From NCBI RefSeq assembly GCF_964204865.1, contig NC_135264.1, forward strand, positions 7,098,001-7,162,000: a stretch of DNA of 64,000 nucleotides, given 5' to 3'. Made by a program: the position numbers and the translations under genes. Shown here one piece after another: positions 634 to 36,357 of this stretch (its first letter is position 1; the number at the start of each line of letters is the position of its first letter). The notes beneath the pieces are model-generated. The model ran no database searches, was not told the origin of the DNA, and saw nothing but the letters and a program-made list of their open reading frames with translations. This stretch comes from Styela clava (taxonomy: Eukaryota; Chordata; Ascidiacea; Stolidobranchia; Styelidae).

Positions 634-1093
634 CTATAACGCATTATATAATTCATTATCTACAACTAATTTCTCGTCTGAAACACTACGTTTATTTTTC
701 TTTTGTTTGTTGACTTCGCTGTATATAGGAATATCGTTGACTTCTTCTACTGGAGAATCGTTATTTGATATGTCGTTCAAATCAATGGTTTTGCTTTTCT
801 TCAACTTCTGATGTGTTGTATGGAGCCTAAATTGAAAGTATCAGTACAATGAATTATGAAGTACATACATTTTAAAGTACAGCAATATAGGTGTCAAACT
901 ATCCACAGCCATAAATTGACATTTTTACATTTTTGTTTTCATTGAATGTAACTTCGGGTTTTTATCAAGCAAAAATTTAGACGTCCTTTTGAAAAAATAT
1001 TGAGTTTAACAGTTTTATTCATCTTACACTTATGAAAAGTAAACCTGTTCGCGATATGAACAATTACTTTCCTCATAATGTCTTGATGCAATT

Positions 1094-1120
1094 CATCACT
1101 ATATATATATATATATATAC
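1094..1120. repeat. (TA)n microsatellite
   Basis: Short run of alternating T and A in the intron between the tail and membrane exons of copy 1. Similar runs lie near 8815, 12774, 44000, 44610, 46670, 51978 and 62510. Confidence 0.9.
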
Positions 1121-2644
1121 AGAAGTTGATTTCAAATATTTTTATAGTGAAGAAAGCGAAGAATACCTTATCATCTGTTAAATATTCTTAGTTTATTTAT
1201 TTCACTCATACCTTACAGCCGATAGTATCAATGCAATCGCTAAGATTCCACATAGGATCCCAAGAATAATGACAACGAGGCTTTCAGTTGTTTGTCCTTT
1301 ACTGTTTTCGTAAACGACATGGTTCACCCCTGCTCAAAATAATACATTTTCTTAATATTTTGTTTGATATGATTATAGCTTTAATGTCTATTCTTACACT
1401 TTGTTTAATGTCTATTCTTACACTTACGTCCAAGAGTAACGGTAGCGGCTGCGTTAAGTGAAAATTGAGATGTACCTCTGGTAGCTTGATCGGGTTTCTG
1501 CGTTGAGCTTATAAATGCGGCATCGGTGGTTGATACTGCAAACGATTTATTAAATTCATTCACATTTGGAGTTATAATGCAGGAGTGAATATTATCTGGA
1601 TTGGAGATTAATTTTGCGAGCATGAAATTCGTATCTTTCCGTAATTAAGCTATCAGGTTCATCTCATTATTAACCAAAAGTGACCAATAGTCTTCGAGTA
1701 GATAGGCACATTGTTGGGAATACAACACCCTCGGTTGGGTAATAAATTGCTAATATGCTCCCAGTACAGAGAAGCATGTGTGGTGTTTGTTAGGAATAAA
1801 AATATTAGCGTTGCTGCATGCTTTTTCTGTAGTTATGTATACCCATGCACCACAATCAGTTTTGGGTATCCACATCCACAATTCTACATTGAAATTACCA
1901 CTTTTAAAGACTTTTTAGCCCATTGTAGGTATTTTTGGGGAGTAAAATATTTTCAGCTTAAAATTTGCTTAGAGATAGATGAGTGAATAGGGAGAGCAAG
2001 ACCTCATTGGAATTTTCGGCAATAGTGACTACCACTACCAGAGCACTTTTGCAGTGTATTTGTGTCAAAATATACCAGAGTCCAAATTAATTTGCACAAT
2101 AGGAAATATGTCTGTACGTAAATTATCTGAAGATAACAAGTTTGTGCGTCATTTTGTTGTCGATAGCTTTTTTACCTCACTCTCTTTTATCGCAACCTAA
2201 CCTCTAGATTACGTTAGAATAATTTAATGATCACCTGAGTCATTATTATAAGCAACGTAGCTGTATTTTATTTTGAATATGTGCCAATCTTTGTAATCAT
2301 GATTGTCGCTTTCGAACAAAACTTTTGGAGGATATGCGTCTTTTCCGGTGAACCAAATCTTGTGTGTACATGTGGTAGTAGCATTGTGAAGGATTTCACA
2401 ATCAATTTTGTCAGGTTTAAATATAAAGCAAACACCTGGTTGGAAGTCACATATGTTCTGACCTGTTTCGAAAAAAAATTTGTAAGATCACATACATTAT
2501 TCAAAAAAATAAGGTAAAATTTTTGCTAGTTTCATAATATGTTGATTATGCCATAACTTACTTGTCGAGAAATGTAGCGTGGATGCAATTTGGATGCCAT
2601 TGACTTCTTTATTATAAATTACAGACAGCTTCATAGGTGACCCA

Positions 2645-4217
2645 TAGGGCTGGGCATTTTAATCGAAACGAAATTTTGCTTTCGAAACGAAATCGAAACG
2701 AAACACACGTTTGTCACAGACAGTGAAACATGTCACCAATATTACCCAACGAATTTATTGTACCGTATATATACTGGCCACGGTACATATTTTCCAGAAT
2801 TAAAACTACAAAAAGGAAGCACTGGTGGCTAATTCGTAAGCATGAACCGATAATGATAATTCCACAAACGTTTCTGCTTAATGACAAAGCAGTGACCAAA
2901 TGGCACCAGAATAATACGAATTACGTCATTGTTAGAGATGGGGCTCACAAGCAGCATAGCATATGGGGCTCTTAACGTATCAATGCTCATTTTCTATTTT
3001 ATCCGACGCCACAGATCCTCTTGATCCAGTACATTGTAAAAAATATTTTTTAATCTGAATTCCGAATACATTCTAAACTCCAGGAACATAGGAAATGGGC
3101 TTTCATGATATTATCGGTGAGTGAAATTAGTTATTTTTGCTCTAGGGAAATGGACTTAATTAATAAACATTACAGTAGTTATGAATTGTGGCCTATCTTG
3201 ACCAGCACAGAAAAAAGAACAACTAGGCGCCCAGAGAAATGTTTTAAATTATACGGTAAAATTAACATTAACTCATTGACTGTTTATCGTCAACGTGACA
3301 TCGACCTCGTTCAACTAAATTTCGCCACAATTATCCCTTCCCACAAATATTGACTATTGTGCTACTGGGGGGAATTGATTTTTATTTTGCTTATAACGCG
3401 ATCATCGTCGTAATGAAATGAGTGGACCCGATTCACAAATTTCCATCCGCCAATGACGGAGAATTAAGACTGAAAATCGTGTTTTATTTTTCTTCAAGGC
3501 AGCTCTGTGATTTAAATATTTCATGTCGACTGTTGTGGTTTTAGTATTGTTTTTAAGTTAATACCACAAACTTGAACTGAACGATATTATTATTAACGAC
3601 GGCAGTCTAACAATAAAATCTGCGATATATACTAAATAATATTTAAGAGCTATTTCCTATGAGGTAAATGCAAGAAATGCTCGGTCATTATCAAAACTAA
3701 GGATGAAAAAGAATAATTACGACAAAATTTGATTTTATATTTATTGCCGCGCTAACACAGACTATCTCGACAATGTTGAAATATACGATAATAATTGTAA
3801 AATATTTTCAATCAAAAACTTCCCCGATAAGTTATACTGCAAGTCGGCGCTGACTTGAATCATTTCATGTCGACAGTCATTTATTGCGCGTCGCAAAGAG
3901 TGTCTTCGATTACGATAAAACATAAAAAATGAAATAATTGTGAAATGTTTTCAATCAAACCGCGGACGGCGGCGCTAGGACTTGTGTGCGATATTCAATA
4001 TTCTTATAAACACTAAAAACGATATTTGAGAGTCGCAATATTCGAATGAATTCGGATATTAATTTCGAATTGGACATCGCTGAATAATACCTTGACTGAT
4101 TTCTGGTTGCATTTGCTATGACGTCATAATATCCGTTTCGGAAGTCGAATGAGCGCCGTTTCGACATATCAGTGTTTCGAAACGTATCGAAACAGTGTTT
4201 CGAAACGCCCAGCCCTA
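2645..4217. mobile_element. Non-autonomous hAT element, 1573 bp, perfect 8-bp target duplication
   Basis: The ends are inverted repeats starting TAGGGCTGGGC. The flanks are an exact 8-bp duplication, GTGACCCA, at 2637-2644 and 4218-4225. The subterminal parts are rich in the word CGAAAC in both orientations. No intact transposase is visible. Copy 3 of the receptor family has the unoccupied site (GTGGCCCA) near 15133, so the insertion followed the duplication that made copies 1 and 3. Internal pieces resemble 59330-59520 and, inverted, 63170-63310. Confidence 0.88.
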
Positions 4218-5032
4218 GTGACCCATTGGTTTAGCAGTACATCAAATAGCCTGAAAAACCTAGAGGTCGAGACAACATCAACGGCGATTTCTTAGTATTT
4301 GTTTCATCTGTTCTGGGAATAATTGACAATACTAAATGAATGACAGCTCACAGCTATCTGGGTATGTCGACTGACATTTATTTTCTTTGGGACAAGCTGC
4401 GAAGCTCAGAAAAAGAAAGTTTGTTAATGTAACTGTACAAGTACAACAAAGAAAAATTTTGTTGGTGAAAAACACTCGAAGCCAATTGTGAGCCAATTCT
4501 ATTTGATATTGGTCTAACAGAAAGAGGATGCCTACCTACAGGAGTGCCAAAGTAAAATCTTGCGAGATAATTTGATTCCCCTTTTCTTCAACGAAAATCT
4601 TTATGTGAAATATGGTATATAACTGTGGAATAAAGTAGGCCAACGGAAATATATCAAACAAACCATTTAAGCTCAGTCGTACGCTATACCACCATTATTC
4701 ATCTCTGTGTTTTGCAACTAATTTCATTTTATCTATTTTCAAGATGATTGCTTCTCCCTTGGATGTCGACGCGTCGGAAAATTTCCACGAGCAATTTTCG
4801 TTCTTACTTTTTTGATAAGGTGGTGTTGATATATATCCTTCAGTATTGTTTAGATACAAATTTTCAAGACTGCAATATCCTCTGGAACAATTTGTCAAAT
4901 AGGCTAAATACAACAAAAATATTTGTTTAATATACCCGAATTTCGATTAGAAGTGTATAGTATTGTACGCGTTTACTTACCTAGGATAATATTCGCGTAC
5001 AAAACGTACTGGGAATACGACATTGCTTTCAT

Positions 5033-6998: not shown

Positions 6999-7236
6999 GT
7001 AACTCCCGTAGTATGTGCAACTAGATGGCGGGTACCGGAACGTAGTATGTGTATCAGGGAAAGGTTAGGCCATAATTTCAGGTACAAATACTACGGGAGT
7101 CACTTGGCTAGTCCCCGAACTCGTAATAGAACTAAAATAGGGAAAATTTGAATGAAATTATGGCCTAAACCTAACCTGGTACACATACTATGTTCAGGTG
7201 TCCGCCATTATGTTGTGTACATACTACGGGAGCGCC
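6999..7236. mobile_element. Foldback MITE, 238 bp
   Basis: Two long imperfect inverted arms (core CTCCCGTAGTATGTG, continuing for about 90 bases) face each other with a short centre. The flanking 8 bases CATTTCCG are repeated exactly at 6991-6998 and 7237-7244. There is no coding capacity. A smaller relative lies at 47467-47578. Confidence 0.8.
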
Positions 7237-8574: not shown

Positions 8575-10080
8575 TTATAAAGAAGAATATAGTTGGTTGT
8601 CTACCATTATCCTTTCGTCGTGATTTATTGATTGAATTGAAGTTGTGTTAACCGTGCTGTACACTGGCATCTCTTGCAGATCTTCAGTTGCCCCAGCAAC
8701 TTCATTCTCGTTGATAGAGGTATCCTCATTTGCACCAGAAGCTGATCGATATTTAATTAATCTGAAAAAAGAATTTAAAACTGAAATTCAGTCATTGCGA
8801 GAAAGTGATATAGCTTTATATATATATATATATTGTAGTTTAACCATACCTTACTGTTGTATACATCAGCAACACTGTCAAAATGACACAAAAACCGCCT
8901 AGAACGATTACTAATGTAATGTAGTTGGCTTCTTTTGCTTCGTTAAATCGGTCTTTAGTGCCAACGGGAATGGTCGTTTCCAATTTCGGACCATCAGTGC
9001 TGTTGTTAAAATAGCCTGTCTCAGAAGTTGCGTTGTCAGCTGCCGTCGTTGTTGCAGCTAAACTGGCCGTTGTTGAAACCGGTGTCCTGGTGGGGACTAA
9101 AATGAATTCGTAAAATTCAAATTCAAATTACATTATGCATTGAAAATTTAATATAAATCATAATACTTACTGATGTAATTGTTACAGTCCACATAGGTGT
9201 ATTTTATTCGAAAATTGTGTTTACTCTCGTAATAATTTCTTTTGTTTTTGAATGTAAGCTTGGGTGGATATGTAGCGTTCCCCAAAACCCAAATTTTTTG
9301 ACTGCAAGTTGAAGTTACATTCGATAAACGTTCACAGGTTTTGTATATTCGTGAAAATATGAAACAAACACCTTGAATGAAATCACAAATATTTTGCCCT
9401 AAAAGTAAGATAGTTCAACATTAATAAAAATAACGTTACGTAAGATTTTAGGATGTTTGCAATTTAAACAGATATACCTTGTAAATCCAGTTCTCCAGTA
9501 CACCACCAAGTTGAATAGTATGAGTATATTAATTCCATTCGTTCAATTTGTAAAACAATCATATCGTTATTTTTTTCAATATTTTCGGGGAATGTCCACA
9601 CGCAGTTTTGAACGTTTGACCCGCTTGCTTGTGGCGAGTTGATATATCCAACTTTCTTTCCAAGATCATTTGTCTCCCGACAGTCACCTCTCGTTGATGT
9701 CGGAAAATATATATCTGAAATGAGAATCGTTGAATTATGCTTAGTTTTTTATATTCTGCATCATGTTGCCCCCGACAAAAAAATTTTGTTTTAATGATTT
9801 GTCTGATTTGTGAAACCATTTAAAGAAAACCACAATGGAGTTGGACCAAGTTGGAAACCGATCCAATTTGTATCATTTCGCGGCTTAGACATTACAGTTG
9901 TTCTATTGATTTGTTGCATGTATTCAACTCGTTTCATATATGACTTTGTGTTTAACGTTTTAGGGCAGATTATTATTACAGCCAATTTAATTCTAAATAA
10001 CCTCGCTTGAATGAGACAAGTTTAATAAGATTCTTACCTGCAATTAATCCGAGCAAGATCCAATAACTTGTAGACTTCAT
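8575..10080 (-). CDS. CUB-domain type I membrane receptor, copy 2 (type B), intact
   Basis: Five minus-strand exons: 10038-10080, 9478-9714, 9171-9398, 8850-9096 and 8575-8761. They total 942 bases, giving 313 residues with no stop or frameshift and phase-compatible GT/AG junctions. Residues 1-14 form the core of a hydrophobic signal peptide. About 15-169 form one CUB-like domain split by an intron (G-Y-I-N-S-P, N-C-V-W-T-F, W-W-C-T-G-E-L, final F-R-I-K-Y-T-Y) with more cysteines than a standard CUB. About 170-225 are a Thr/Ser/Asn-rich stalk, followed by a membrane helix starting Y-I-T-L-V-I-V-L. The 62-residue tail holds M-P-V-Y-S-T-V and ends Q-L-Y-S-S-L, both Y-x-x-hydrophobic motifs of the sort used in endocytosis or in tyrosine signalling. 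It should be a single-pass surface protein. Ligand and function are unknown. Confidence 0.82.
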
Positions 10081-11300: not shown

Positions 11301-11429
11301 GATGGGATTTATGTGGAACTCATAATGGGTATGATAATCCAATTTTGGGGGTGCAAATGGATGTTATTTTGAACCTATGGATCGTTTTGTTATTAAATTG
11401 TACTTTTTCTTTATTATAGAATTTTATTC

Positions 11430-11620
11430 CCTATCGTTATGAAAAAAATCGCTTTTCTCGTTGATTACTGGACCAATTGTTTTAAAATTAAAGGTGGTTA
11501 AAGCTTGTATTTTCGCTAGAAGGCTATTACTTTTATTTTTATTAAATGTTTCTGTTAGCTCTATGGGATTCGTTTTTTTGTTTTGTTTGTTATGACGTCA
11601 TCAAAATTTGCGTACCTCGT
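11430..11620. repeat. Interspersed repeat shared with 19115-19285
   Basis: Begins around AATCGCTTTTCTC and runs through GACCAATTGT and CGCTAGAAGGCT to a GTGGCG word. The same string of words in the same order occurs at 19115-19285, upstream of copy 4. It may be part of the duplicated A-B unit or the 3' end of a retroposon. I cannot tell which. Confidence 0.5.
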
Positions 11621-11699
11621 GGCGATTCCGCGAACGTATATCAGCGGATTTCGTGCTTGGCGAAAGTGTGAAGTTTTTTATGAATAAGATAGGATTTAC

Positions 11700-11790: not shown

Positions 11791-11889
11791 ATGGATTTCG
11801 TTTTATTTTTCTATCGGAAGCATGGGCTTGATGGCGGAGAAAGCGTGACCAGAAAAATCATTAAATCTGAAGACAGCCTCTAAAACCCG

Positions 11890-13642: not shown

Positions 13643-16461
13643 TTACATTGACATATTGTCTTTGTGATCAATCGTTAAGATTCCACATAAGATTCCAAAA
13701 ATAATAACGATAGTGCATGCAGCTGTTTGTCCTTGACTGTTTTCGTAAACGCCAGTTTCTATTGCTTCATCGCTATTCGTTGTTGAAGATGCGACATGCT
13801 TAACCCCTGGTCAAAATAATACTATATATTTTAACGACATCTTAAACTTAATATTATGTTTTATATGATTATAGTGTTTAATGTCTATTCTTACGCTTTG
13901 TAGTACGTCCATGAGTACCGGTAAATGCTGTTTTACGTGAAAATCGAGATGTACCTCTGGTAGCTTGGTCGGGTTTCTGCGTTGAGCTTATAAATGTGGC
14001 ATCGGTGGTTGATACTGCAAATAATTTATTAAATTCATTCACATTTGGGGTTGTCATCTAGGGGTGAATATGACCTGGCTTGATGAATAATTTTACAAGC
14101 AAGGAATTTATACTAAGTCATAATTAAGCTATATATCAGTTTCATCTTATTAATGACCAAAAGTGAACATAGCAGATAGCAACGTTGGTGGGATTACAAT
14201 ACCCTCCGATGCGCAATAAAGTGATATTATGCTCCCTGTGCAGAGAATCCTGTGTGGCTGTGGGAATAAAAATATCAGCATTGCAGCATGTTTTTGCTGA
14301 AGTTAAGATTTCCCATGCAACGCAATCAGTTTTGGGTATCCACGTCCACAATTCTACATAGAAATTTATACTTCTAAAGACTTTTCAGCTCAATTGGTCA
14401 TTATTGTTATCTGTGGAAGGAAAACATTTACAGGGTAAAATTTGCATAGAGGTAGATGAGTTATAATAAAGGTGCATAATACAAGACCTAATTGTATTTT
14501 CGGCAAAAGTGACTACCTCTACCAGAGTACTTTTGCAGCATACTTGTATGAAAATATACCAGTGGTCAAATTAATTTGCACAATAGAGATAATATGTACG
14601 TAAATTATCAGAAGAGCACAAGTTTGTGTATTATTTTGTTGTCGATAGCTCTTTTCATGTTATATACTATTGATTAATTATGACTCTTTTACCTTAACTT
14701 ATACATTTCGTTAGAAGAATTTACTGCTTACCTGGGTCGTTATTACAAGCAACGTAGCTGTATTTTATTTTGAATTTGTGACTCGTTTCGTAATGTTTAA
14801 TTTGGCTTTCAAACAAAACTTTTGGAGGATACGCGTCTTTTTCGGTGAACCAAATCTTGTGTGTACATGTGGCTGTGGCATTTTGAAGTATATCACAATC
14901 AATTTTGCCAGGTTTAAATATGAAGCAAACACCTGGCTGGAAATCACATATATTTTGGCCTGTTTCAAAAAAAATATGTAAGATCACATACTTTATCAGA
15001 AAAATAAGGTGAATTTCGGCTAGTCTCAATCATAATGTTTCGTTTCATATGTTTAATATGCCATAATTGTCGAGAAATGTAGCGTGGATGCCATTTGTGA
15101 CTGTTTTATTATAAGTTACAGACAGCATCACAGGTGGCCCATCGGTTCACCACAGAGGTCGAGACAACATCAACGGCCTTTAGTATTTATTTCGTCTTTT
15201 CTGAGAAAATTGACAATAATAAATGAATGATAGCGCACAGCTATATAAGTATGTTGACTGACATTTCTTGTCTTTGGAACAAGCTGCAAAGCTCAGAAAA
15301 AAACAAGAGAGCTATGCTCAAATATATGACACGTTTACCGATTCTCAGAAATTCACCAACATTTACAGACATCAGTTATAACAGTGACTGCAAGCCCCGC
15401 TTTTACGAGACAGTTACGAGTTAGTTCAGTGTCACCGCGCTGTGTTAGGGTACCGGAACTGCCCTACCTTTAGAAGTTCTCGTGACAGCGTGAATTAAAA
15501 TTGCGAGATGGTCCGACTCACAACTGTAGTAACACCAACGATCCGAGTCACGACTGTAATACAACACCACTTGCTTCCCCATTCCTCAAATCTTAGCAAA
15601 GCAAGGATTTCGTTACGAACCACCGACGTTCGATGGCACGTGATCGAAAGAACATGAAGAGGAGTGCCAGCATTAGTGTCCGCTGAACGTTCGGTGAAGT
15701 CATAGCAAACAGAAACAAATCTCACAGAGCTAACAGAAATATTTGAAATAAATAAAAGTAATATCCTAAAAATGTCATTTTTAACCACTAAAAATTTATA
15801 AAGCGATTGGTCCAGTAATCAAAGAGAAAAGCGACTTTTTCGGTTTTCCACTAGGTGTCCAAAAAGTAAACGATCGTTAATTTTGTTGGCGGAAAACGCT
15901 TGAAGCCAATTTCATTTGATATCGGTCTAACAGGAAAAGGGTGCTTTATAACAGTGTGCCAAAGAGTGCCAAAGTAAAATCTTGCAAGATAATTTGATTC
16001 ACTTTTTGTTCAATGAAAATTTTTATGTGAAATATGATATATAACTGTGGAATGAAGTAGGCTAACGAGAATATATCAATCCAAACAAACCATTTAATCT
16101 CAGTCGGACAGTATACCACCAGTATTCATCGCTGTATATGTAACTAATTTCATTTCATCTATTTTCAAGATGATGATTGCATCTCCCCTGGATGTCGACG
16201 CGTCGGAAAATTTCCACAAGCAATTTTCGTTCCTAATATTTTGATAAGGTGGTGTTGTTATATATCCTTCGGTATTGTTTAGATACAGATTTTCAAGACT
16301 GCAATATCCTCTGGAACAATTTGTCAAATAGGCTAAAAAAAACAAAAATATTTGTTTACCATAACCAAATTTCGATTAGAAATGTATAGTATTGAAGGCG
16401 TTTACTTACCTAGGATAATATTCGCGTACAAAACGTACTGAGAATACGACATTGCTTTCAT
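13643..16461 (-). pseudogene. CUB-domain receptor, copy 3 (type A), frameshifted and tail-less
   Basis: Exons parallel to copy 1: 16410-16461 (start), 16091-16332 (CUB first half), 14732-14959 (CUB second half, all cysteines kept), 13907-14014 (stalk) and 13643-13806 (membrane segment). The first CUB exon is 242 bases against 240 in copy 1. A net -1 shift near 16125-16160 takes the reading frame off the conserved W-W-Y-x-V-R-L end. The stalk donor is GTACTA instead of GTAAGT. After the membrane core G-I-L-C-G-I-L-T-I the sequence runs directly into what is 3' flank in copy 1, giving a nine-residue tail and a stop at 13643. The deletion removed the end of the helix, an intron and the whole tail exon. 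Copy 3 is therefore most likely dead. Confidence 0.72.
15300..15870. other. Insertion in the copy 3 intron, absent from copy 1
   Basis: The flanks align with 4405-4460 in copy 1, but about 570 bases are present only here. The insert is richer in GC and contains repeated words such as CCGACTCACAACTGTA and CCGAGTCACGACTGTA. I find no clear inverted ends or coding region. Confidence 0.45.
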
Positions 16462-22107: not shown

Positions 22108-23568
22108 TTATAAAGAAGAATATAACTGGTTGTCTACCATTATCCTTTCGTCAGACTTTTTTAATTGAGTTAAAGTATTGTTAACCGTGCTGTACACTGG
22201 CATCTCTTGCAGATCTTCAGAGCCAGCAACTTCATTCTCGTTGATGGAGTTACCCTCATTTGCACCCGAAGCAGATCGATATTTAATTAATCTAAAAATT
22301 GAATTTAGAACTGTAGAAATTCATTCCTTGCGATAAAATGATATAGCATTATGTGTGTATATATCGTAGTTTAACAATACCTTACTGTTGTATACATCAA
22401 CAAAACTGTCAAAAACATCCAAGAGCGATCACTAATGTAATGTAGTTAGCTTCTTTTGCTTGGTTAAACCGGTCTTTAGTGCCACCGGGAATGGTCGTTT
22501 CAACATTCGATCCATACCTGCTGTTGTTGAAAGAGCCAGTCTCATAAGTTGGGTTGTCAGCTGCCGTCGTTGTCGCAGCTACACTGACCGTTGTTGAAAC
22601 CGGTGTCCTGGTGGTGGCTAAAATGAAATCGATACTTCGATTTAAACTACATTATGCATTGAAAATTAAATATACATCATAATACTTACTGATGTAATTG
22701 TTACAGTCCACATAGGTGTACTTTATTCGAAAATTGTGTTTACTCTCGTAATACTCTTCTTTGTTTTTGAATGTAAGCTTGGGTGGATATGTAGCGTTCC
22801 CCAACACCCAAATTTTTTGACTGCAAGTTGAAGTTACATTCGATAAAAGTTCACAGGTTTTGTATATTCGTGAAAATATGAAACAAACACCTTGAGTAAA
22901 ATCGCAAATGTTTTGCCCTAAAAATGAGACAGTTCAATATTAATCAACATAACGTTAGGTAAGTTTTTAGGATGTTTGCAGTTGAAACAGATATATATAC
23001 CTTGTAAATCTAGCTCCCCAGTACACCACCAAGTAGTTGACTCATACAAGTATATTAATTCCATTTGTAAAACAATCATATATATCGTTATTTTTGTCAA
23101 TATTTTCGGAGAATGTCCACGCGCAGTTTTTAACTTGGTTTTCCGTTTGCTAATCGTGAGTTGATATATCCAACTTTTTTACTTAGATCATTTGTCACCC
23201 GGCAGTCACCTCGTGTTGGTGAGGAAATATATATATCTGAATGAGGAATCGTTGAATTAATGCTAATTTTTTATATTCTTCATCATATTTCCCCCCGACA
23301 TAAAAGTTTGGTTTTGATCATTTACCTGACCTGTGAACTCCTGAATATCTAATGCTGTACTGTACGAGTATCCCCTAATAGAAACAATGCCTACAGACAA
23401 AACGCCTTCAATTTGAAAGATTGCTACAAGATGTGATTGGGAACTTCTTGCATAGATCAGATTTAAAAACAAACTGTGTTAAACATCCCAATGAACTTGG
23501 GAATTCCATGCGATACAGGCAAGATCCCGTGTTGCCCAGTCGCCTGGTTTAATTTTCTATAAAGTTTC

Positions 23569-24262
23569 GGGTGTCTCCAAAATGTCGTGTCCTACGTGTC
23601 TCACTTTTCCCACGTGTCCTACTTGTTCGACGTGTCCCACTTGTATCACGTGTCCCATTTGTCTCACTAGTTCCACGTGTCCTACGTGTCCCGCTTGTAG
23701 CACGTGTCCCACTCGTTTATTATATATGCACATAACACACGAGATAAACTGCCTGGTTATATTTAGTTTTGATAGATATGTTTGCAATCTTGCTAATTCA
23801 TTGTCGCCGTTAGGAATCCGTATTTTTGACATTTCGCGGAATAGAGAAATCTGTACTCGTAACACCGATCCGCTTTATCGCAATGCTGCCACTCAGCTTA
23901 TTTTTAAGATATACCCGTTATCATCTCACGAAGTAAAATTTATTTTAGTACTATAAAACCTAATTGGATTAATTAATTTATTATCACAATCCGCGTTGCG
24001 TTTACAACTTTGTATAATGTTTCAGTGATTCGATTCGATTTTAGTCATGGTATGGTTTCCAACGCTAACCAACCATAATGTGTGCCTGAGGCGAAACAAT
24101 TGACGATTTTAGCAAAATACACGCGGTATTAGCGACTAGTGGGACACGTGGGAGAAGTGGGACACGGGACAAGTGGGACACCAGGTACTAGTGAAACACG
24201 TGGGACACGGGGAACAAGTGGGACACGTGACACAAGTGGGACACGACATTTTGGAGACACCG
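23569..24262. mobile_element. Inverted-repeat element with repeat-array ends, 694 bp
   Basis: Bounded by a 9-bp direct repeat TAAAGTTTC (23560-23568 and 24263-24271). Terminal inverted repeats start GGTGTCTCCAAAATGTCG. Just inside each end lies an array of degenerate units built on CACGTGTCCCACTTGT (about 23582-23720), facing an inverted array (about 24140-24245). The centre is unrelated AT-rich DNA. The other receptor copies have the empty site, TATAAAGTTTCCTAGATTTG in copy 5 near 31505. I cannot assign a superfamily. The 8 or 9 base duplication would fit hAT or Mutator-like transposition. Confidence 0.82.
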
Positions 24263-24271
24263 TAAAGTTTC

Positions 24272-24440
24272 CTATATTTGACGTCTTATACCAGCTAGAC
24301 CAGAATAGGCAGTACAGTAGTTTTGATAGCTCAGTATTTTGTTCAGATCTTACTAATGCGAAGCTCATAGACTCCCGAGATATTTCCGTGAACCTCAAGT
24401 CCACCGCCCATCGGTTGGAAACCCATTCAGTTTGTCGGCA
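24272..24440. other. Resumed intron 1 of copy 4
   Basis: Matches 31505-31620 in copy 5 and 36035-36140 in copy 6, which shows that the 694-bp element interrupted an ordinary intron. The similarity stops near 24440, where other inserted sequence begins. Confidence 0.6.
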
Positions 24441-25189
24441 TGCGCCGGCAACGCTTTCAATTCCTTACTGTATGTATCCGCTGAACAGCGTTTATGAAGG
24501 TTTCCCATCAGTTTCCTTGTTTATTTCCGTAACTATAACCAATCAGCAAGGAGTCAATAATGACGCAACACGTAACAATTGCAATTTCTGCACCCTGCCG
24601 CACAGACACTTCTGTCGCTAAAACAGATATTCAAGCATGGTTGCAAACATTGCCTCGTTTTTGTAGTTTTGAATGATTTTTGTCAGTTTTCAGTTGTATT
24701 TCAAGAAATTTATTGTGAATTAATTAACCTAATTGTCATTATGTTTTCCGCAGAGCTTTACTTTAGTTGCAGTAATCGAAATTGAATCTCGCAAATGCTG
24801 CGATGGACAAAGCTAAACTTAGCTATATGTAGGGTGCTATCGATATGAACCCAAAAATAAAGACATCAGGGAAACATAATAATAGAATAACAAAGAACGA
24901 AATGTAATAAACAAAATGTATTCATGCAGTGGCGTATCTAGGTAAAATGTCGCCCATGGCAAAGGTTTAAAAATGCGCCCCCTACTTCGCTTGTTTCCTT
25001 TTTTCGTTTACATGAAATTGGTTGCTCTCAACTACGCAACATAACAAGCAAATTAATAACTACACAATAAACAATAAGCAGTAGGCGATCGGCAATAACA
25101 AGTTCTTAGAATACTATATATATTTCGTGACGCAAATTTGCCAATGATTTCATCAAAATTTGTTTTTCTTGTTTCACCCCTCTTTATAC

Positions 25190-26160
25190 TTAATATAGCC
25201 AGATCACAAAGGTTTCCTGGCTAATTGAAGATCGAAGGTATGACAGAATTAATTTTAGTTTACTAAACGACCGATCGCAATTTTCTATGGATACTGCCAA
25301 TGTCAGCAAAATTTGCAAAGCTATCCGGAGATTGGGGAGATCCAGAAAAGACTCTTTGACACACACTGTTTTCTCGTCATAGTCTATATCTTACATGGGC
25401 AAACTACGGCCCGCTGGCCAAATCCGGCCCGTTGGCTATTTAAAACTGGCCAGCCTGATGCTTCCACAACCAAACTAAAACCAAATTTTGATGTTTTAGC
25501 TGAAAAATAGCTCGAGGAATTTGTTTAGATTGCGATTAAATTTAGTTTCTGCACGAGGCTAATTGTTTTGCACTTTTGCTTTTGTAATACTGTAAATATT
25601 GTCCATAATATGTAACTTTTTACGTCACACTTACATTTCCCGTCACTATAGGCGGGCAAAATGGTTGGCCCGTGAACCGAAGACCTTGCCCCCCTGGTCT
25701 ATATTAACAGACCTCACAACTTCTGAAACCTGATCTCGATGCGCCTGGTCATGAGTTGAGTCAAATATAAGACCATATGACTTTGCTTTTTTAATTTTTC
25801 CTGTCAAGTTTTTGCGAACATGAGATGCCATAATGTGAATAAATTCGTTTTGAACACCTGGGGAAATGTAAGAGGTTGAATGTGGATGGCTTCCAATGAA
25901 ACCGAGATGCTCTCGCAGCACAGGATCAAAGACGGCAAGGAATTTTATTAAGCCAAGAAAATGACCAACATTTGAATTACTATCTGCTTGAAGTGACTCC
26001 CTGTGCCCTAACAAAGCGAGATTTTGTTCCGCCAGACACTTTATTCCATGCGATATTCATTTAAGAACCCCACTACATTTTTGCCTTTCCTTTTTAATTT
26101 GTACATGGAAATCGGCGTCAATAATTCTTGTTTATTGCTCAAATTTCTTTACACGCTGTA
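25190..26160 (-). pseudogene. hAT transposase remnant (DUF4371 / ZMYM1-like)
   Basis: Read on the minus strand from about 26160. Family words seen in order: K-E-R-Q-K, N-L-A-L-L-G-H-R-E, N-V-G-H-F-L-G-L-I, D-P-V-L-R-E-H-L, S-P-G-V-Q-N-E-F-I, I-K-K-A-K-S-Y, I-F-D-S-T-H-D and D-Q-V-S-E-V-V-R. After the inserted MITE come V-K-E-S-F-L-D and then directly the C-terminal dimerisation stretch (C-D-R-S-F-S-K-L-K-L-I, Y-L-R-S-S-I-S-Q-E). The catalytic middle between these two parts is missing. There is a TGA in the N-terminal part near 26060 and a stop at 25190. It belongs to the surrounding 2062-bp element and cannot encode an active enzyme. Confidence 0.82.
25391..25697. mobile_element. hAT MITE inserted in the transposase remnant, 307 bp
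   Basis: Near-duplicate octamers TCTATATC (25383-25390) and TCTATATT (25698-25705) flank it. The left part reads GGGCAAACTACGGCCCG and the right part CAAGGTCTTCGG when complemented. It splits the transposase codons for V-N-I-D from V-K-E-S-F-L, so removal of the insert restores continuity of the family similarity. Confidence 0.78.
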
Positions 26161-26185
26161 AAACATTCTCTCTCATTGTAAGAAT

Positions 26186-26654
26186 CAGTGGCGTAGCAAG
26201 ACTCTCGTGACCCCCCTAAAAACTCTCGGACATAAGCTGAAACAACGCTTTTTTTATTTCGTCAAAAAGCATAACATGTCGGCAATGGTAACCTAAAATT
26301 TGCCGTTTATCTTGGTTACTTTAATTTTTTCATACGTTCATCCTCTTCTGCCCTTTTTCTGCGTTTCTGTGCGCCACTGAGAGGTTTTGCTTTTGACATC
26401 ATTCTGACAGCCTTTGTAATTTTGCCGGTGCGATCAAACCACAAGACGCCGAAAATCGACGACTCCATGGCATTGTTACGTAACAAAACGATTTGTGCAG
26501 AACTAACATCATCGTTATAAGATGTGCATTACTTGTTTTGCACTGCAGCTTTTGGTTTGCGGCTTAAATTTCTAAATTCTAACCGCTTTGGCCCCTTTGC
26601 GCTGTGGGCCCTCCCGCGACCGCGGGGGTTGCGGGGGTGGATGCTACGCCACTG
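26186..26654. mobile_element. hAT-like MITE, 469 bp, nested
   Basis: Ends CAGTGGCGTAGC and GCTACGCCACTG. Flanks GTAAGAAT and GTACGAAT match at seven of eight positions. Internal sequence is non-coding, with a GC-rich patch near 26590-26640. Confidence 0.85.
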
Positions 26655-26996
26655 GTACGAATATTCATAAATTTTCACTCCAGTACGATATCAGAGCTAA
26701 TATGAGGTGCAGTAAGTCCAGTACCGTATCAGTTTCGGCTTATTGATGTTGAATTATGACATCACCGTCAATTGCGCTAAGTGACTGAACAAACTGCTTG
26801 ATCGTTGGAAACTGCAAACTGCATTGACTTTTGTTAAATTTGTTCTGATTTAATTAGAAATACGAGTTTCATTCATTTTCATGTTTTATTGAAAATTATA
26901 CAATTAGAACTTTTCGCGTTTTTTGCGCCCCCGTCCGAACGGCGCTCATGGCACGAGCCATGGCTGCCATACCCTAGATACGCCACTGTATTCATG

Positions 26997-27840
26997 CTAG
27001 TGCGACCCGTGTCTGATCATACTTTGCAAAAGATTTGCTCCAGCAGTTCTTTATTCTTAGAAACAATCTGTTCCATCTCACTTTTAAGTTGTATTTTGAT
27101 TTAGGTTACACGCAGTGATTTTGGTCGGTAGGCTATTGTTTTGTCACTGTGTCAATTAATTTGCTGTTATTACGTAATGAATGCACGTAGCAATCAATGA
27201 TGTAGTAAAATATCATTTCTAGCAAATCAACCATTCGATTTGACCAATTTAAATGTCTGATATTTGAACCTCTACCCATAAAATAAGGACACATGTTGAA
27301 AAAAGGACGTTTTTTAGAAATAAGGGCAAAATTATTTTCGAAGACAAATACCATCGGAATAAGGACAAATCTTAGAAATGAGGACGTTATGGCAGCCCTG
27401 GCTTTATAGTACCTGCAAGCGGCACATGGTTGATTAATTTTAATGAAAATGATGGTTTCAAACACGTAAACCATTTTACATGCGCCAACGCATCGAAATA
27501 CTTCCAGAATAAGCATGAAGTTTACAATTGTAAAGTATAGGGGTAATTTTCCCGCAGTCAATGGTCGGGGAAACGTCCATACCGCTGGTGCGCTATCAGT
27601 CCTTGTCTCTAGAGATCGCCCTCGCCCGCTATTTCCCACCTCGAATGAAGCGATATGGGCATGTTTTTGTCCGTTTTGCGTGTTACGCCACAAAGAATGT
27701 AGTGCCACATTATAAAATACTCCCATAGCACGTTTCTTGTGTCTTTTTCCTCACGCTAAAAAAGAGCTTTGTCGGTGGTTCGCGGCCATAGTAAAAAACA
27801 GTAAAATGGTACGCGGTCAGTGAAAGGTTGAAAACCACTG
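26997..27840. other. Repeat-derived filler in intron 1 of copy 4
   Basis: Contains hAT-like end words: CCAGGGCTGCCATAACG (complement) near 27395 and GGTTGAAAACCACTG near 27825-27836, directly before intron sequence shared with the other copies resumes at 27840. I cannot pair these ends into complete elements. Confidence 0.45.
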
Positions 27841-27977
27841 AAACGTTTTAAAACAGATTATTACAGCCAATTTAATTCTAAATAAACTCGCTTGAATAAA
27901 ATAGCGTCATTTACAAGTTCGATAAGATTCTTACCTGCAATTAATCCGAGCAAGAGCCAATAACTTTTATTCCACAT

Positions 27978-29482: not shown

Positions 29483-31839
29483 TTATGAAGAATATAGATG
29501 GTCCTCTACAACAATCCTTTCGCTTGAATTTTCATATTGATATGAAGTTTCGTATATCGTGCTGTATACTGGCATCACTTGCGGTTCTCCAGTTGCAGCA
29601 GCAACAACTTCGTTCTTTCTGATGATGTGACTTTCAATTGCTTCAGATGCAGATCGATACTTGATTATTCTAAATAAAAATGGAATTTTTTGCTGCCCTG
29701 TTTTTTGTTGGCGTGGTAGTGGTATAACTATATATATATCGTGGTTCAACAATACCTTACTGCTGCATATATCAGAGATACTGATAGAATGACGCAAAAA
29801 CATCCAAGAACAATCACTGATGTAATATAGTTGGCTTCACTTGTCCCGTAACAGTGGTCTTTGGAACCACCCAACGCTGTCGTTTCTAGTTTCGGTTCAT
29901 TAGTTCTGTTGTTGAAAGAATCAGTCCCAGAAATTACGCTGTCCTTTGCCGTCGTTGTCGAAATCGTTGCCCTGGAAGTGTCTGAAAAGAAATGAGTAAA
30001 ATTACGCTACTTCGTTTAAGTTTTTAGCAAATATTGAAGTTTTTTTTTCACAATTTCGAATATGAAAGACGCATTTTTAGTCTTATAGTACAATTGAAAT
30101 TGTTTACAATTAACCTGATTGTTAGAAACGAGAGTAATTTTCCACATAATTTTGCTCAAAGCCCCACTAGTAAACAAAGTTAAATAACAGACACTGACAA
30201 TAGAACTCCAAGCGACCTCAGACATGGTAATTTTTATTTGTATGTTTATCCTTTCGACAGTGATGTCAGTGAATTATCAGAATTTAGAAAGAATTCAATT
30301 TCACACAAGGAAAACAGAAAAGTGGATGGGCAGTCGACGACATTGGATTACTTTTATTAAAAAAGGTTAGCATAGAAACTTTCTTGGCAAATGAACATTG
30401 AGTTTAATTAATAAAAACTTTCATGCGGAAACGACCAAAGAAAGTTCAGATCTTATTTTAGCATTCCGTGAGCGCGAAACAGCGCGCGATATTAACCAAT
30501 GGAGAGCATCTGGAAAGGAACCTACTACAAAAATCATTCAAGAAATAAAACAATCTATACTAGAGTAAAATGTATATTGATATTGAACATACAGTACAAA
30601 TAATATACTTACTATTATAATTATTGCAATCCACATAGGTGTATTTTATTCGAAAATTGTGTTTACTCTCGTAATACTTTCCTTTGTTTTTGAACGTAAG
30701 CTTGGGTGGATATGTAGCGTTTCCCAACACCCAAATTTTTTGAGTGCAAGTTGAAGTTACATTCGATAAAAGTTCACAGGTTTTGTATATTCGTGAAAAT
30801 ATGAAACAAACATCTTGAATGAAATCACAAATGTTTTGCCCTAAAAGTAAGATAGTTTAACATTAATTAGAATACCGTAACGTAAGATTTTAGAATCTTT
30901 GCCATTTAAACAGATATACCTTGTAAATCCAGCTCTCCGGTACACCACCAAGTTGAATAGTATAAGTATATTAATTCCATTCGTTTAATTTGTAAAACAA
31001 TCATATCATTATTCTTGTTAATATTTTCGGGGAATGTCCACACGCACTTTTGAAAGTTTGACCCGCTTGCTGGTGGTGGCGAGTTGATATATCCAACTTT
31101 CTTACTTAAATCATTTGTCACCCGACAGTCACCTCTCGTTGGTGTCGGAATATATATATCTGAATTAGGAATCGTTAAATTAATGTTTATATTTTATATT
31201 CTGCCTCAAGTTGCCCTCACAAAGAAGTTTGATTTTGATGATTTGCCTGATTTGTGAACGCCTTCGAAGAAAACCAGTCAATACTGTACTGCACGAGTGG
31301 CCTTTAATATAGATACAATGCCCACAAACGGAAAATGACTTCAGTTTGTAAGATCTGCCGGAACCTTATTGCATAGATGAGATTCAAGAAGAAACTGTGT
31401 TAAACATTCCCTTGAACTTGATAAACTTGCAAAGTTTAAAGAAAGAAAACCATGCGATACGAGCAAGATCCCGTGTTGCAAAGTGTCCCGGTTTATTTTT
31501 TGTTATAAAGTTTCCTAGATTTGACGTCTGATGGTAGCTAGCAAAGGTCACAGACTCACAGAATATTTCTGTGAACCTCTTGGAGTCCACGTCCATCGGT
31601 AGAAAGCCGACTCAGTTTGTATCGTTTTGCGACTTAAAGAGTACGGTTGTTTTGTCGCGTTGTTAGATGTATCCAACTCGTTTCATAAGCGCCTTTGCGT
31701 TTAAAAATTTCATGGCAGATTATTACAGCCAATTTAATTGTAAATAACCTCGCTTGAATAAAATAGCTCCATTTACAAGTTAGATAAGAAACTTACCTGC
31801 GATTAATCCGAGCAAGAGCCAATAACTTTTATTCTTCAT
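29483..31839 (-). CDS. CUB-domain type I membrane receptor, copy 5 (type B), intact
   Basis: Five exons: 31797-31839, 30920-31159, 30613-30840, 29756-29981 and 29483-29669. They total 924 bases, giving 307 residues with all phases matching. Layout: signal peptide core 1-14 (S-Y-W-L-L-L-G-L-I-A), CUB-like domain about 15-168 with G-Y-I-N-S-P, C-V-W-T-F, W-W-C-T-G-E-L and the final F-R-I-K-Y, Thr/Asn-rich stalk to about 221, membrane helix about 222-245, and a 62-residue tail. The tail holds Y281-S-T-I followed closely by Tyr285, Tyr289 and Tyr291, and ends L-Y305-S-S. The final leucine of copies 2 and 4 is lost by a 3-base difference. The intron between exons 3 and 4 is 631 bases, against 74 in copy 2. 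5' half like copy 2, 3' half like copy 6. A single-pass receptor role is inferred. Confidence 0.83.
30018..30570. other. Insertion in the exon 3-4 intron of copies 5 and 6
   Basis: About 550 bases are absent from the same intron of copies 2 and 4 and shared with 34637-35190 in copy 6. It holds two coding-like stretches. On the minus strand, 30016-30225 is an ORF starting M-S-E-V-A-W-S-S-I-V with a hydrophobic start. On the plus strand, 30425-30568 is an open frame containing L-I-L-A-F-R-E-R-E-T-A-R-D and W-R-A-S-G-K-E-P, ending TAA. Both frames are broken in copy 6. I recognise neither. They may be captured exon fragments. Confidence 0.45.
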
Positions 31840-32950
31840 TTCTATCTAGTTCTATTTTAGCTCCTGTTCTTATCACTCTGTTATTCATTGCTTCAAAAAA
31901 CAAAGAGCAAAGTCCGTTGTGTTCAGCACTAAATGCGTTCGATATAATGATCATAGCATTTATCCTTATCATCTTAACACTTCCCACCATCTTACGAGTG
32001 GGCATCTAAGAATGTTGATACTTCCGCATAGTTATTAATTCATAAGTTCCAAGTGATATAAACTTGATTCATCATGTAAATAGATGAGAAGCATTTTGCC
32101 AACGTTGTCGCGTTCGTGAGTAAATTTGAATGTTTATGATATGAAACAATTGGGATTACTTTTGGCTTAAAGTTTTTTTTTGCCAATTTCGAATCTGCAC
32201 TGACAAAAATTAACTTGAGAGAAATGCTTACGAATACACGACCTCTAAGGGACTTTTAGTTCGGTAATAGAATTCAATAATTTAAAATCACGCAGTCACA
32301 TTGAGGATGGTGTCTCTGTCTAAGCTTGTTAGACTCAATTCCTAGAATAATTATGCCTAAACTGTCGATAAAAGATTTATGTTTACCGTACAAACAATTG
32401 TACTGATGTATAATGTGAATAAATTCTGAATGACGGTATAGTGTATCCTCAAATATCATGTATGTTTATTGTTTAGTTACTCCAAGAAACTTTCAAATTT
32501 GAGTGATTTTCAAACAAAACCTCTTCAGCAAATCTGGTTCATGAGCGTTGTATGTTACCGATGCATTCTGCATCAACCTGACATTCGTCAGAGCGTCACC
32601 GTTCTACCTTAGGTTCTCAATTTGAATGATTTTTTATGTTGTAACTCGACTTGTACAATTATTGACTGTGGGCAACAACTTACCAAGCTAACGATAGAAC
32701 GATAGATGAGGCATTAATATATTCCCGATTTCCTAACACACACTTAACCATACGACTTAATTGTTGCTATCACACATAGACAGCCCAATGTGATTGGAAT
32801 GATTCAGCGCCTTGACGGAGTCGCTTTTCAATGATAAATAGATAGATACCACTGACACATCTACACTCACGCTTTGTCTTGAAACTGTGTATGTCTAATG
32901 CAGACTGTCTATCACGAGCCCTAACATGGTGAAAATATATTGATCGAGCT
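31840..32950. repeat. 5' flank of copy 5, duplicated at 10081-11300
   Basis: Matches the upstream sequence of copy 2 over most of its length, supporting a shared 5' half for copies 2 and 5. No coding exon is seen. Confidence 0.7.
31970..32015 (-). promoter_or_regulatory. Conserved upstream block of type B genes
   Basis: About 140-180 bases above the copy 5 ATG, the words AACACTTCCCACC and ACGAGTGGGC form an interrupted inverted pair, kept at 28032-28065 (copy 4) and 36423-36455 (copy 6) and shortened at copy 2 (about 10229-10265). Position and conservation suggest a promoter-proximal element, but it may simply be duplicated sequence. Confidence 0.25.
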
Positions 32951-33839
32951 TATCACGATTCACGGGTGCAAATTGTTGTTATTGTGGAACTATGGATCCA
33001 TTTGTTATTAAGTTGTTCTTGTTCTTAATTATAAAAATTTTCTTCCTATCGCTGTAGTAATATGAAGCAAACTCCAATGGTGAAATTGCAAATGTTTTTT
33101 ATCTGAATTTGTAAGAAAATTCCGAAAAAAGTCATATTTCTAGTTGTATTTAATTTGTAATGTATATTCGAGCTAAGGCAATATTAATATTAGGCTTAAT
33201 GCATTTTGTATATATTATTTCAATTAAACTATTTAGAGCAGCTGATTATACATTCTGTAATGCATTTGTTTTGAGACACTTCCTAAATTTCAAATGTAGG
33301 CTATTCGAAATGATGAATTATTCAGTATTGACCATCCCTGTGCTCATGCTTATCATCAAATAATAATAATAAAACATAGATCGATAGGAAAGCGTAGGTG
33401 TCTACTCAAATACATCCTCTAATCCAAGTGTATCGAGATAATTCTTTATCCGTCTGCATAGCAAAATCACGTTTATTAGAAGACTTATTATAGTTTGACA
33501 GTATTTAGCAATCCATATTGAAGTAAACTATATTAAACGGATTTCCAATTTGGAATAAGTTCATGGATCGCGTGTCGAGTGACAATATTCGCGTTGTATA
33601 TTTTTTCTTCACATTGGGAGCAATTATTGGTCAATTTTGTTTATTAGGTTGATACAATTTTCTTAACCGCACATCGAAAATTCAAATGCTTGAATTAGAG
33701 ATCTATTTTGTCAATGCAAAACGAAATCCTTGAAGTCGCTTTCCCGTTGCATATGTACATACTTAGAAAAATTTGTAAAAATGGGCAGAAATTTAAAACA
33801 ATAATTCCATTTCAGAAGCATCGTTCAAAAGTCAATATA

Positions 33840-35222
33840 TCACAGATTATATGAATAACGCAATTAAAAGAATTGTATCTTTGGATTAAAGTAGCCTACT
33901 CTAAATATTTAGTTGGATTCGATTGTTGCACTTCGGAAAGGCATATCTGGAACGACACAAAAATATTTTGATCGATGTTGATTTAATGAAAATATTTTAC
34001 ATTATTTCAACAAGTGCTTGATTCCACATTAGGCTACTACGTATTGGCCAATATCCGATCGTAGAAATTCAAGCGTTTTCAAAGAGTTGATTTATGAAGA
34101 ATATAGATGGTCCTCTACAACAATTCTTTCGCTTGAATTTTCATATTGATATGAAGTTTCGTATATCGTGCTGTATACTGGCATCACTTGCGGTTCTCCA
34201 GTTGCAGCAGCAACAACTTCGGTCTTTCTGATGATGTGACTTTCAATTGCTTCAGATGCAGATCGATACTTGATTATTCTAAATAGAAATGGGATTTATT
34301 GCTGTGCTGTTTTTTGTTGAGTGGTAGTGGTATAACTATATGTATATATCGTAGATTAACAATACCTTACTACTGCATATATCAGAGATACTGACAGAAT
34401 GACGCAAAAACATCCAAGAACAATCACTGATGTAATATAGTTGACTTCACTTGTCCCGTTACATTGTTCTTTGGAACCACCCAACGCTGTCGTTACTAGT
34501 TTCGGTTCATTAGTTCTGTTGTTGAAAGAATCTGTCCCAGAAATTACGTTGTCCTTTGGCGTCGTTGTCGAAATCGTTGCCCTGGCAGTGTCTGAAAAGA
34601 AATGAGTAAAATTACGCTACTTCGTTTAAGTTTTTAGCAAATATTGAAGTTTTTTTTTCACAATTTCGAATATGAAAGACGCATTTTTAGTCTTATAGTA
34701 CAACTGAAATTGTTTACAATTAACCTGCTTGTTAGAAACGAGAGTAATTTTCTCACATAATTTTGCTCAAAGAAAATCTCGAGCCTCACTAGTAAAACTA
34801 AGTTAAATAACAGAAACTGACAATAGAACTCCAAGCGACCTCAGACATGGTAATTTCTATTTGTATGTTTATCCTTTCGACAGTGATGTCAGTAGGTTAT
34901 CACAATCTAGAAAGAATTCAATTTCACACAAGGAAAACAGGAAAGTGGATGGTGAGTCGACATTGGATTACATTTAATAAAAAAAGTTTAGCATAGAAAC
35001 TTTCTTGGCAAATGGACTTTGGGTTTAATTAATAAAAACTTTAATGCGGAAACGACCAAAAAAAGTTCAGAACTTATTTTTAGCATTCTGTAAGCGCGAA
35101 ACAGCGCGCGAAATTAACCCATGGAGAGCATCTGGAAAGGAACCTACTACAAAAATCATTCAAGAAATAAAACAATCTATACTAGAGTAAAATGTATATT
35201 GATATTGAACATACAGTACAAA
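33840..35222. repeat. Segmental duplication, 3' half of copies 5 and 6
   Basis: Nearly identical to 29225-30602: 3' flank, tail exon, membrane exon and the long intron. Few substitutions separate them, so this is the youngest duplication in the array. Confidence 0.85.
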
Positions 35223-36357
35223 TCATAAACTTACTGGTATAATTGTTGCAATTCGCATAGGTGTATTTTATTCGAAAATTGTGTTTACTCTCGTAATACT
35301 TTCCTTTGTTTTTGAATGTAAGCTTGGGTGGATATGTAGCGTTCCCCAACACCCAAATTTTTTGACTGCAAGTTGAAGTTACATTCGATAAAAGTTCACA
35401 GGTTTTGTATATTCGTGAAAATATGAAACAAACACCTTGAGTAAAATCGCAAATGTTTTGCCCTAAAAATGAGACGGTTCAATATTAGTCAACATAACGT
35501 TAGGTAAGTTTTTAGGATGTTTGCAGTAGAAACAGATATACCTTGTAAATCTAGCTCCCCAGTACACCACCAAGTAGTTGACTCATACAAGTATATTAAT
35601 CCCATTTTTTTAACTTGTAAAACAATCATATCGTTATTTTTGTCAATATTTCCGGGAAACGTCCACACGCAGTTTTGAACGTGTTTTCCGCTTGCTTGTG
35701 GCGAGTTGATATATCCTACTTTCTTACTTAAATCATTTGTCACCTGACAGTTGCCTTGTGCTGAAGTCGGAATATATATATCTGAATTAAAAATCGTTGA
35801 ATTATTGTTCATTTCATTCGCTTCAAACCTACAGAAAACTCCCTCAGTTTGAGCGATGCTATAAGATGTGATTTGTCGGAAACTATTTGCTTAGATTACA
35901 TTCAGGAACGAACAGTGTAAAACATCACATTGAACTTGATAAACTGACATCTTGCAAATTTATAAGGAATACAACCATGGGATGCGAGCAAAATCCCGTG
36001 TTGCTCAGTCACCTGGTTTAATCTTCTATAAGTTTTCTAGATTTGACGTCTTATAGCTAACCAAGCTCACAGACTCACAGAATATTTCTGTGAACCTTAT
36101 AAAGTTCATAGCCATCGGATGGAAACCTATTCAGTTTGTATCGTTTCGCGGCTTAGACAGTACGGTTGTTCTGTTGCCTTGTTTTATGTATTTAACTCGT
36201 TTCATATTTGCCATTGCGTTTAACGTTTCAAAACAGATTAATACAGCCAATTTATTTCTAAATAACCTCACTTGAATAAAATAGCGTTATTTACAAGTTC
36301 GATAAGATTCTTACCTGCGATTAAGCCGAGCAAAAGCCAATAAATTTTATTCTTCAT
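34092..36357 (-). CDS. CUB-domain type I membrane receptor, copy 6 (type B), intact, recombinant
   Basis: Five exons: 36315-36357, 35542-35781, 35235-35462, 34366-34591 and 34092-34278. They total 924 bases, giving 307 residues, no stops, all phases matching. Same layout as copy 5: signal peptide (I-Y-W-L-L-L-G-L-I-A), split CUB-like domain, stalk, one membrane helix and a tail with V-Y-S-T-I and terminal L-Y-S-S. Exons 4 and 5 and their introns match copy 5 almost base for base. Exons 1 and 2, their introns and the 5' flank match the dead copy 4. The switch lies inside exon 3, around 35301-35316. Copy 6 thus preserves, in working order, the 5' half that is broken in copy 4. Function is inferred from the architecture only. 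Confidence 0.83.

What the first reader, a model, noticed from the sequence alone, without database searches (positions are those of the whole stretch)
634..36357. Six-copy tandem array of CUB-type single-pass receptors with tyrosine tails
Seen in sequence: six minus-strand gene copies with the same exon plan (signal peptide, split CUB-like domain, stalk, one membrane helix, short tail), three open throughout and three broken. Known: clustered, rapidly duplicating single-pass receptors with live and dead members are typical of immune, self/non-self or gamete recognition loci. Inference: this may be an undescribed recognition receptor family. I do not recognise the family by name.
Basis: partly seen in the sequence, partly recalled or inferred. 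Interest (0 to 1): 0.85.

Follow-up and report, generated by a model that had tools for sequence, protein, structure and literature searches.

The report
Array of mosaic CUB-derived surface receptors
In an unidentified animal genome, six neighbouring gene copies, three of them intact, look like small cell-surface receptors whose outer and inner halves have been swapped between copies; they have relatives elsewhere in the genome, the Pfam library does not recognise them, and what they sense is unknown.

Summary
Six minus-strand copies lie at 634-36357. Three (8575-10080, 29483-31839, 34092-36357) are open with proper splice sites: signal peptide, ectodomain on two exons, Ser/Thr stalk, membrane helix, tyrosine tail. 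One copy has a single in-frame stop; two are frameshifted. Exon 2 is distantly CUB-related by profile comparison; Cys-rich exon 3 is not recognisable as CUB; Pfam finds no family. New here: (1) a seventh copy lies 1.4 Mb away, and a relative on contig C6 has the same plan for exons 1-3, among nine mostly weak matches there; (2) four copies form a 2x2 mosaic of two ectodomain types by two stalk/tail types, with opposite tree topologies for the two gene halves (AU p<1e-5 and <1e-34); (3) the ectodomain is on average under purifying selection (dN/dS 0.26-0.30). This speaks against a hypervariable self/non-self locus and for exchange between receptors with similar ectodomains and different tails, as in vertebrate paired receptors. 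Tails hold Yxx-hydrophobic motifs but no ITIM, ITSM or ITAM. Ligand, expression and species were not determined.

The parts
634..5032 (-). Copy A: exons 5032-4981 (candidate), 4903-4664, 2462-2235, 1535-1428 (stalk), 1329-1212 (membrane helix), 826-634 (tail); in frame over all exons except one TAA in exon 2
   Evidence: exon borders and frame counted by hand from the sequences printed
8575..10080 (-). Copy C (intact, 313 aa): exons 10080-10038, 9714-9478, 9398-9171, 9096-8850, 8761-8575; ectodomain type alpha, tail type II
   Evidence: mosaic class
13670..16461 (-). Copy B (dead): exon 1 candidate from 16461, exon 2 from 16333 with a frameshift, exon 3 14960-14739 open, exon 4 remnant about 13750-13670, no tail exon found
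22111..27977 (-). Copy D (dead): exon 1 about 27977-27935, exon 2 about 23237-22999 (frameshifted), exon 3 22918-22694 open, exon 4 from 22597 (frameshifted), exon 5 22293-22111; ectodomain type beta, tail type II
   Evidence: exon 1 assigned by inference
23569..27841 (.). Insertion in intron 1 of copy D, with a DUF4371-like fragment on - at 25646-26056 (30.9 bits, just under Pfam's cut-off of 32.1)
   Evidence: (similarity to copy F stops at 23568 and resumes at 27842)
29483..31839 (-). Copy E (intact, 307 aa): exons 31839-31797, 31159-30920, 30840-30613, 29981-29756, 29669-29483; ectodomain type alpha, tail type I
34092..36357 (-). Copy F (intact, 307 aa): exons 36357-36315, 35781-35542, 35462-35235, 34591-34366, 34278-34092; ectodomain type beta, tail type I
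32558..33099 (-). Old remnant with short exon-3-like (33099-33055) and exon-4-like (32794-32759) stretches; similar DNA at 10896-11436
   Evidence: iE 0.006 and 0.05, weak

Best explanation
The array encodes type I single-pass surface receptors: short signal peptide, an ectodomain of about 150 residues whose first half is CUB-derived and whose second half is a family-specific Cys-rich segment, a Ser/Thr-rich stalk, one helix and a tail of about 62 residues with tyrosines. The genes evolve by tandem duplication, gene death and exchange between copies; the exchange has joined two ectodomain types (alpha: C, E; beta: D, F) to two stalk/tail types (I: E, F; II: C, D) in all four combinations. Most likely working: the conserved ectodomain binds a ligand, and the tail's Yxx-hydrophobic tyrosines are phosphorylated and bind SH2 proteins, or drive endocytosis, so that similar ectodomains are wired to two different outputs, as in vertebrate paired receptors. 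Shown: gene structure in the DNA, mosaic, purifying selection on average, relatives elsewhere in the genome. Inferred: expression, surface location, ligand, phosphorylation, immune-type role.
For: Three intact spliced models with matching borders. dN/dS of the ectodomain 0.28, 0.30, 0.26 for C-E, C-F, E-F; exon 3 dN/dS 0.14-0.32 for the six pairs among C, D, E, F and 0.27 for A-B. Opposite topologies: exon 2 to start of exon 3 groups (C,E)(D,F), 24:1:1 informative sites, alternatives AU 5.9e-7 and 1.1e-6; exon 4 to exon 5 groups (C,D)(E,F), 88:0:1, alternatives 2.9e-36 and 3.7e-35. Exon 2 (7 rows) against 18 CUB domains of the same genome: prob 93%, score 41; the whole 7-row ectodomain profile scores 40.6, while 60 column-permuted CUB profiles give at most 21.1 against it; reversed CUB 0.1%. 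Seventh copy and a relative with the same plan for exons 1-3 on C6. Hydrophobic segment at about 224-256 in C and 218-250 in F, and N-glycosylation sequons.
Against: No transcript or protein evidence. No Pfam CUB hit for any of the members scanned (C, E, F and five relatives). Exon 3 alone shows no similarity to CUB (prob 0.75%). No ITIM, ITSM or ITAM by the consensus in PMC2832619. The intron between exons 2 and 3 (phase 1, after LDLQG) does not match the split that I read by eye in two canonical CUBs of the C3 cluster (phase 0, after DYxE). Intron 1 supports neither topology firmly (1:5:2). One of the four mosaic types (D) is dead. Opposing outputs of the two tails are a guess.
Confidence: 0.55

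Rival explanations
1. A hypervariable self/non-self or gamete recognition locus: copies diversify to recognise many allelic ligands.
For: Tandem array with live and dead copies and exchange between them; further relatives on other contigs.
Against: Ectodomain dN/dS 0.26-0.30; exon 3 of C, D and E is 92-95% identical in protein to that of F. Pairwise averages can hide a few diversified sites, exchange distorts them, and no population data were available.
Confidence: 0.2
2. Auxiliary or adhesion proteins (for example neuronal single-CUB membrane proteins) with a housekeeping role, duplicated by chance.
For: Single-pass proteins with CUB domains are known in synapses (recalled; PMC9083331 seen only in the search listing). 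Purifying selection on the ectodomain.
Against: Six copies of which three are broken would be unusual for such genes (recalled); no Pfam domain above cut-off in the proteins scanned.
Confidence: 0.15
3. Endocytic or scavenger receptors: the Yxx-hydrophobic motifs are sorting signals and not phosphotyrosine docking sites. This overlaps with the best explanation, which leaves uptake open.
For: Two tyrosines each in A, C and D and one each in E and F fit Yxx(L/M/V/I/F); none fits ITIM, ITSM or ITAM.
Against: Types I and II differ in number and place of tyrosines while the ectodomains are alike, which suggests different outputs; the motif alone cannot separate the two readings.
Confidence: 0.25

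Closest known systems
CUB domain (Pfam PF00431)
   Same: Exon 2 matches the N-terminal half by profile comparison (G-x-I-x-SP, C-x-W-x-F, hydrophobic strand).
   Different: Below Pfam detection; second half is a Cys-rich segment without detectable CUB similarity; intron at another place and phase than in the two canonical CUBs read.
Vertebrate paired receptors, for example CEACAM (PMC2832619, passages seen) and Siglec-11/16 (PMC5701461, start of abstract)
   Same: Similar ectodomains joined to different tails, with exchange between paralogues.
   Different: CUB-derived, not Ig; both tail types carry tyrosines; no ITIM, ITSM or ITAM; opposite signalling not shown.
Invertebrate allorecognition clusters, for example Hydractinia Alr and Botryllus fuhc (recalled; PMC11067881 and PMC12065747 seen only in search listings)
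   Same: Clustered single-pass receptors with live and dead members (recalled).
   Different: Those have other ectodomains and high polymorphism (recalled; for fuhc also the abstract start); here the ectodomain is conserved among copies.
Canonical CUB genes of the same genome (150 scored matches of 350 candidates)
   Same: Share the CUB N-half pattern.
   Different: None of the 150 scored matches lies in the window; all 150 reach Pfam's cut-off, some complete on one exon, many split.

Membership tests
CUB domain PF00431 | Reaches Pfam gathering score | tested here: not met
   hmmscan of copies C, E, F and of five relatives (L018, L021, L022, L023, L061): no CUB match
CUB domain PF00431 | N-terminal half homologous by profile-profile comparison | tested here: met
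   exon 2: prob 93%, score 41; yardsticks made with the 7-row ectodomain profile: 60 column permutations, maximum 21.1, reversed CUB 0.1%
CUB domain PF00431 | C-terminal half homologous | tested here: not met
   exon 3 alone prob 0.75%
CUB domain PF00431 | CUB beta-sandwich fold | tested here: inconclusive
Paired receptors | Similar ectodomains on different tails, with exchange between genes | tested here: met
   2x2 mosaic, opposite topologies
Paired receptors | One activating and one inhibitory tail | not testable with these tools
   tails differ in tyrosines; signalling unknown
ITIM/ITSM/ITAM receptors | (I/L/V/S)xYxx(L/V), TxYxx(V/I) or the ITAM pattern in the tail (consensus from PMC2832619; the first class of the ITIM is partly cut off there and filled from recall) | tested here: not met
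   0 of 5 tails (A, C, D, E, F; B has none) have any
Hypervariable allorecognition receptors | High polymorphism and diversifying selection in the ectodomain | tested here: inconclusive
   paralogue dN/dS 0.26-0.30 speaks against; no population data

The most novel reading that the evidence does not exclude
A large receptor family, unknown to Pfam and spread over several chromosomes of this animal, uses a CUB-derived ectodomain in place of Ig domains and rewires it by exchanging ectodomain and tail exons between neighbours, giving a counterpart of vertebrate paired immune receptors built from other parts.
Probability: 0.25. Interest if true: 0.8.

Novelty: new variant of a known kind. Interest (0 to 1): 0.5.

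Why it matters
Paired receptors with similar ectodomains and different tails are best known from vertebrate Ig and lectin families (recalled, and PMC2832619 for CEACAM). A CUB-derived counterpart would suggest that the arrangement arises repeatedly, and this array gives a small, fully described system in which ectodomain and tail exchange can be dated and tested.

Tried and rejected
Rejected: canonical CUB gene (no Pfam CUB hit). The weak Pfam matches that did appear are below their cut-offs and taken as chance: TMEM132_C E 0.06-0.21 in C, E and F, COX14 and I-HmuI_NUMOD-like in C, BLTP1_M in L018, SNAD1 E 0.026 in L061. Rejected: intron position as support for CUB. Rejected: ITIM/ITSM/ITAM tails. 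Rejected: orphan exon 1 at 27.9 kb as a further copy; it fits copy D, which has no other exon 1. Led nowhere: PDB sequence search with copy E (0 hits at E up to 10); tRNA and Rfam scans (0 hits); attempts to name the organism (paper search; the COX1 search did not complete); AlphaFold2 of exon 3 alone; Pfam scan of ten other window ORFs (DUF4371-like in one; other matches E 0.017-0.096 below cut-off). No paper describing this family was among the rows listed in the searches (20 of 82 listed; 15 of 42; 15 of 136; 12 of 17; 12 of 64; 10 of 24); I saw titles and abstract starts only, and the library holds open-access papers only.
Full report
Observation. Self-comparison and exon-level searches find six copies on the minus strand between 634 and 36357. 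Copies C (8575-10080), E (29483-31839) and F (34092-36357) splice into open 313, 307 and 307 aa proteins with GT-AG borders. Copy A is in frame over six exons except for one TAA in exon 2 (its total of 939 bases is my own sum). Copy B has a frameshift in exon 2, a degenerate membrane-helix exon and no tail exon found; copy D has frameshifts in exons 2 and 4. D's exon 1 lies beyond a roughly 4.3 kb insertion in its intron 1. With the copy F exon 3 as a plain tblastn query, the other five copies score E 3.5e-24 to 1.1e-49, far beyond chance.

Protein. Short signal peptide, exons 2 and 3 (about 156 residues together), stalk with about 30% Ser/Thr (C and F measured), one hydrophobic segment, tail of 61-63 residues; C and F each have five extracellular N-glycosylation sequons, two of them overlapping in C, and one more in the tail, where it would not be used. 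Tails: A, C and D have two Yxx-hydrophobic sites; E and F have one, plus three extra tyrosines, and their last tyrosine lacks the hydrophobic residue. None of the five tails fits ITIM, ITSM or ITAM as given in PMC2832619 (passages; test).

Is it a CUB domain? Pfam finds none, and phmmer with copy E finds nothing in the PDB. I compared profiles of the family with 18 CUB domains of the same genome, several of them near-identical neighbours: five rows prob 85%, seven rows 89%, eight rows 91%; reversed CUB 0.1%. The seven-row profile scores 40.6 against a maximum of 21.1 for 60 column-permuted CUB profiles. Split by exon, exon 2 gives 93% and exon 3 only 0.75%. The seven- and eight-row profiles include loci that were themselves fetched for exon-2 or exon-3 likeness, so the five-row value is the cleaner one. 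A relative on C16 (L022) has the motif RHGNITSPGYPGNF in the exon-2 place, which I recall as typical of CUB. Against: the intron between exons 2 and 3 does not match the split that I read by eye in two canonical CUBs of the C3 cluster. So: first half CUB-derived, second half unproved.

Mosaic. Sliding identity and four-taxon tests show two histories in one gene. From exon 2 to the start of exon 3, C groups with E and D with F (24:1:1 informative sites, alternatives AU 5.9e-7 and 1.1e-6); exon 2 alone 12:1:1 and intron 2 alone 9:0:0 agree. In exons 4-5, C groups with D and E with F (88:0:1, alternatives AU 2.9e-36 and 3.7e-35). Exon 3 alone cannot decide between these two (3:3:0) and is alike in all four; intron 1 is not firm (1:5:2). 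Hence four combinations of two ectodomain and two tail types; one of them (D) is dead.

Selection. Nei-Gojobori dN/dS over the ectodomain is 0.28, 0.30 and 0.26 for the pairs C-E, C-F and E-F; the tail gives 0.65, 0.61 and 0.28; the stalk 0.56, 0.70 and 2.61, the last on one synonymous and eight nonsynonymous changes and so not meaningful alone. Exchange between copies distorts such values.

Relatives. Exon 2 finds 12 places in the genome, eight of them in the window; exon 3 finds 22. Of the 22, six are in the window, one is the seventh copy on C19 at 8.50 Mb (exon 1 candidate and exons 2, 3 and membrane helix readable, tail exon not found), ten are on C6 (nine of them between 18.21 and 18.60 Mb), and five on other contigs. 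Ten of the 22 have E below 1e-3, including two of the ten on C6; the other 12 are weak (0.018 to 4.2). I read two of the 15 places that are neither in the window nor the seventh copy: C6 at 18.259 Mb shows the same plan for exons 1-3 with donors, C10 at 15.605 Mb shows exon 3. Of three loci fetched for weak exon-2 hits, two have a weak exon-3-like stretch downstream in the right order (L021 iE 0.94, L022 iE 0.095) and one does not (L023). That the C6 places form a working array is an inference.

Origin. The window is part of contig C19 (18.7 Mb) of a 376.6 Mb genome in 379 contigs. C20 is 0.45 Mb and the contigs C1, C3, C6, C10, C14, C16 and C19 whose lengths I saw are 18.7-32.7 Mb, so I infer about 19 chromosome-sized contigs. 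The species was not identified; 'animal' rests on the gene content (for example at least 150 CUB matches).

Interpretation. The conserved ectodomain, the two tail types and the exchange between copies fit receptors that share a ligand but differ in output. Ligand, expression and signalling are unknown.

Noticed in passing
L050 (G000:C25:1-3000; contig of 44,494 bases): GC 31%; a 750 aa frame that needs TGA read as Trp (looks like a B-family DNA polymerase by eye, no Pfam hit) followed by a PD-(D/E)XK nuclease (PF12705, E 3.6e-6): perhaps a phage-like or mollicute-associated element rather than a host chromosome.
   Followed up: partly
G000 contigs C20-C28, C30 and C374-C379 (up to the first 3 kb of each, 16 loci): In about 13 of the 16 the longest reading is a tandem satellite of the VIGVFWRFFTVFKRFSS kind or its reverse strand (by eye).
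   Followed up: no
G000:C3:8.18-8.22 Mb, C3:15.70-15.81 Mb, C2:23.99-24.11 Mb, C19:9.36-9.39 Mb: Dense clusters of canonical CUB matches, some with stops; part of C3:8.21 Mb looks cubilin-like by eye.
   Followed up: partly
48038-48962 +: Retroelement-like gag/protease fragments (by eye; no Pfam support).
   Followed up: no
56790-57445, 41230-41503, 51558-51662: Tandem duplications with 329, 134 and 54 base units, 96-100% matching.
   Followed up: no
23561-24270: Imperfect inverted repeat, reading in part as a Cys/Pro/Thr-rich low-complexity peptide, at the edge of the insertion in copy D.
   Followed up: no
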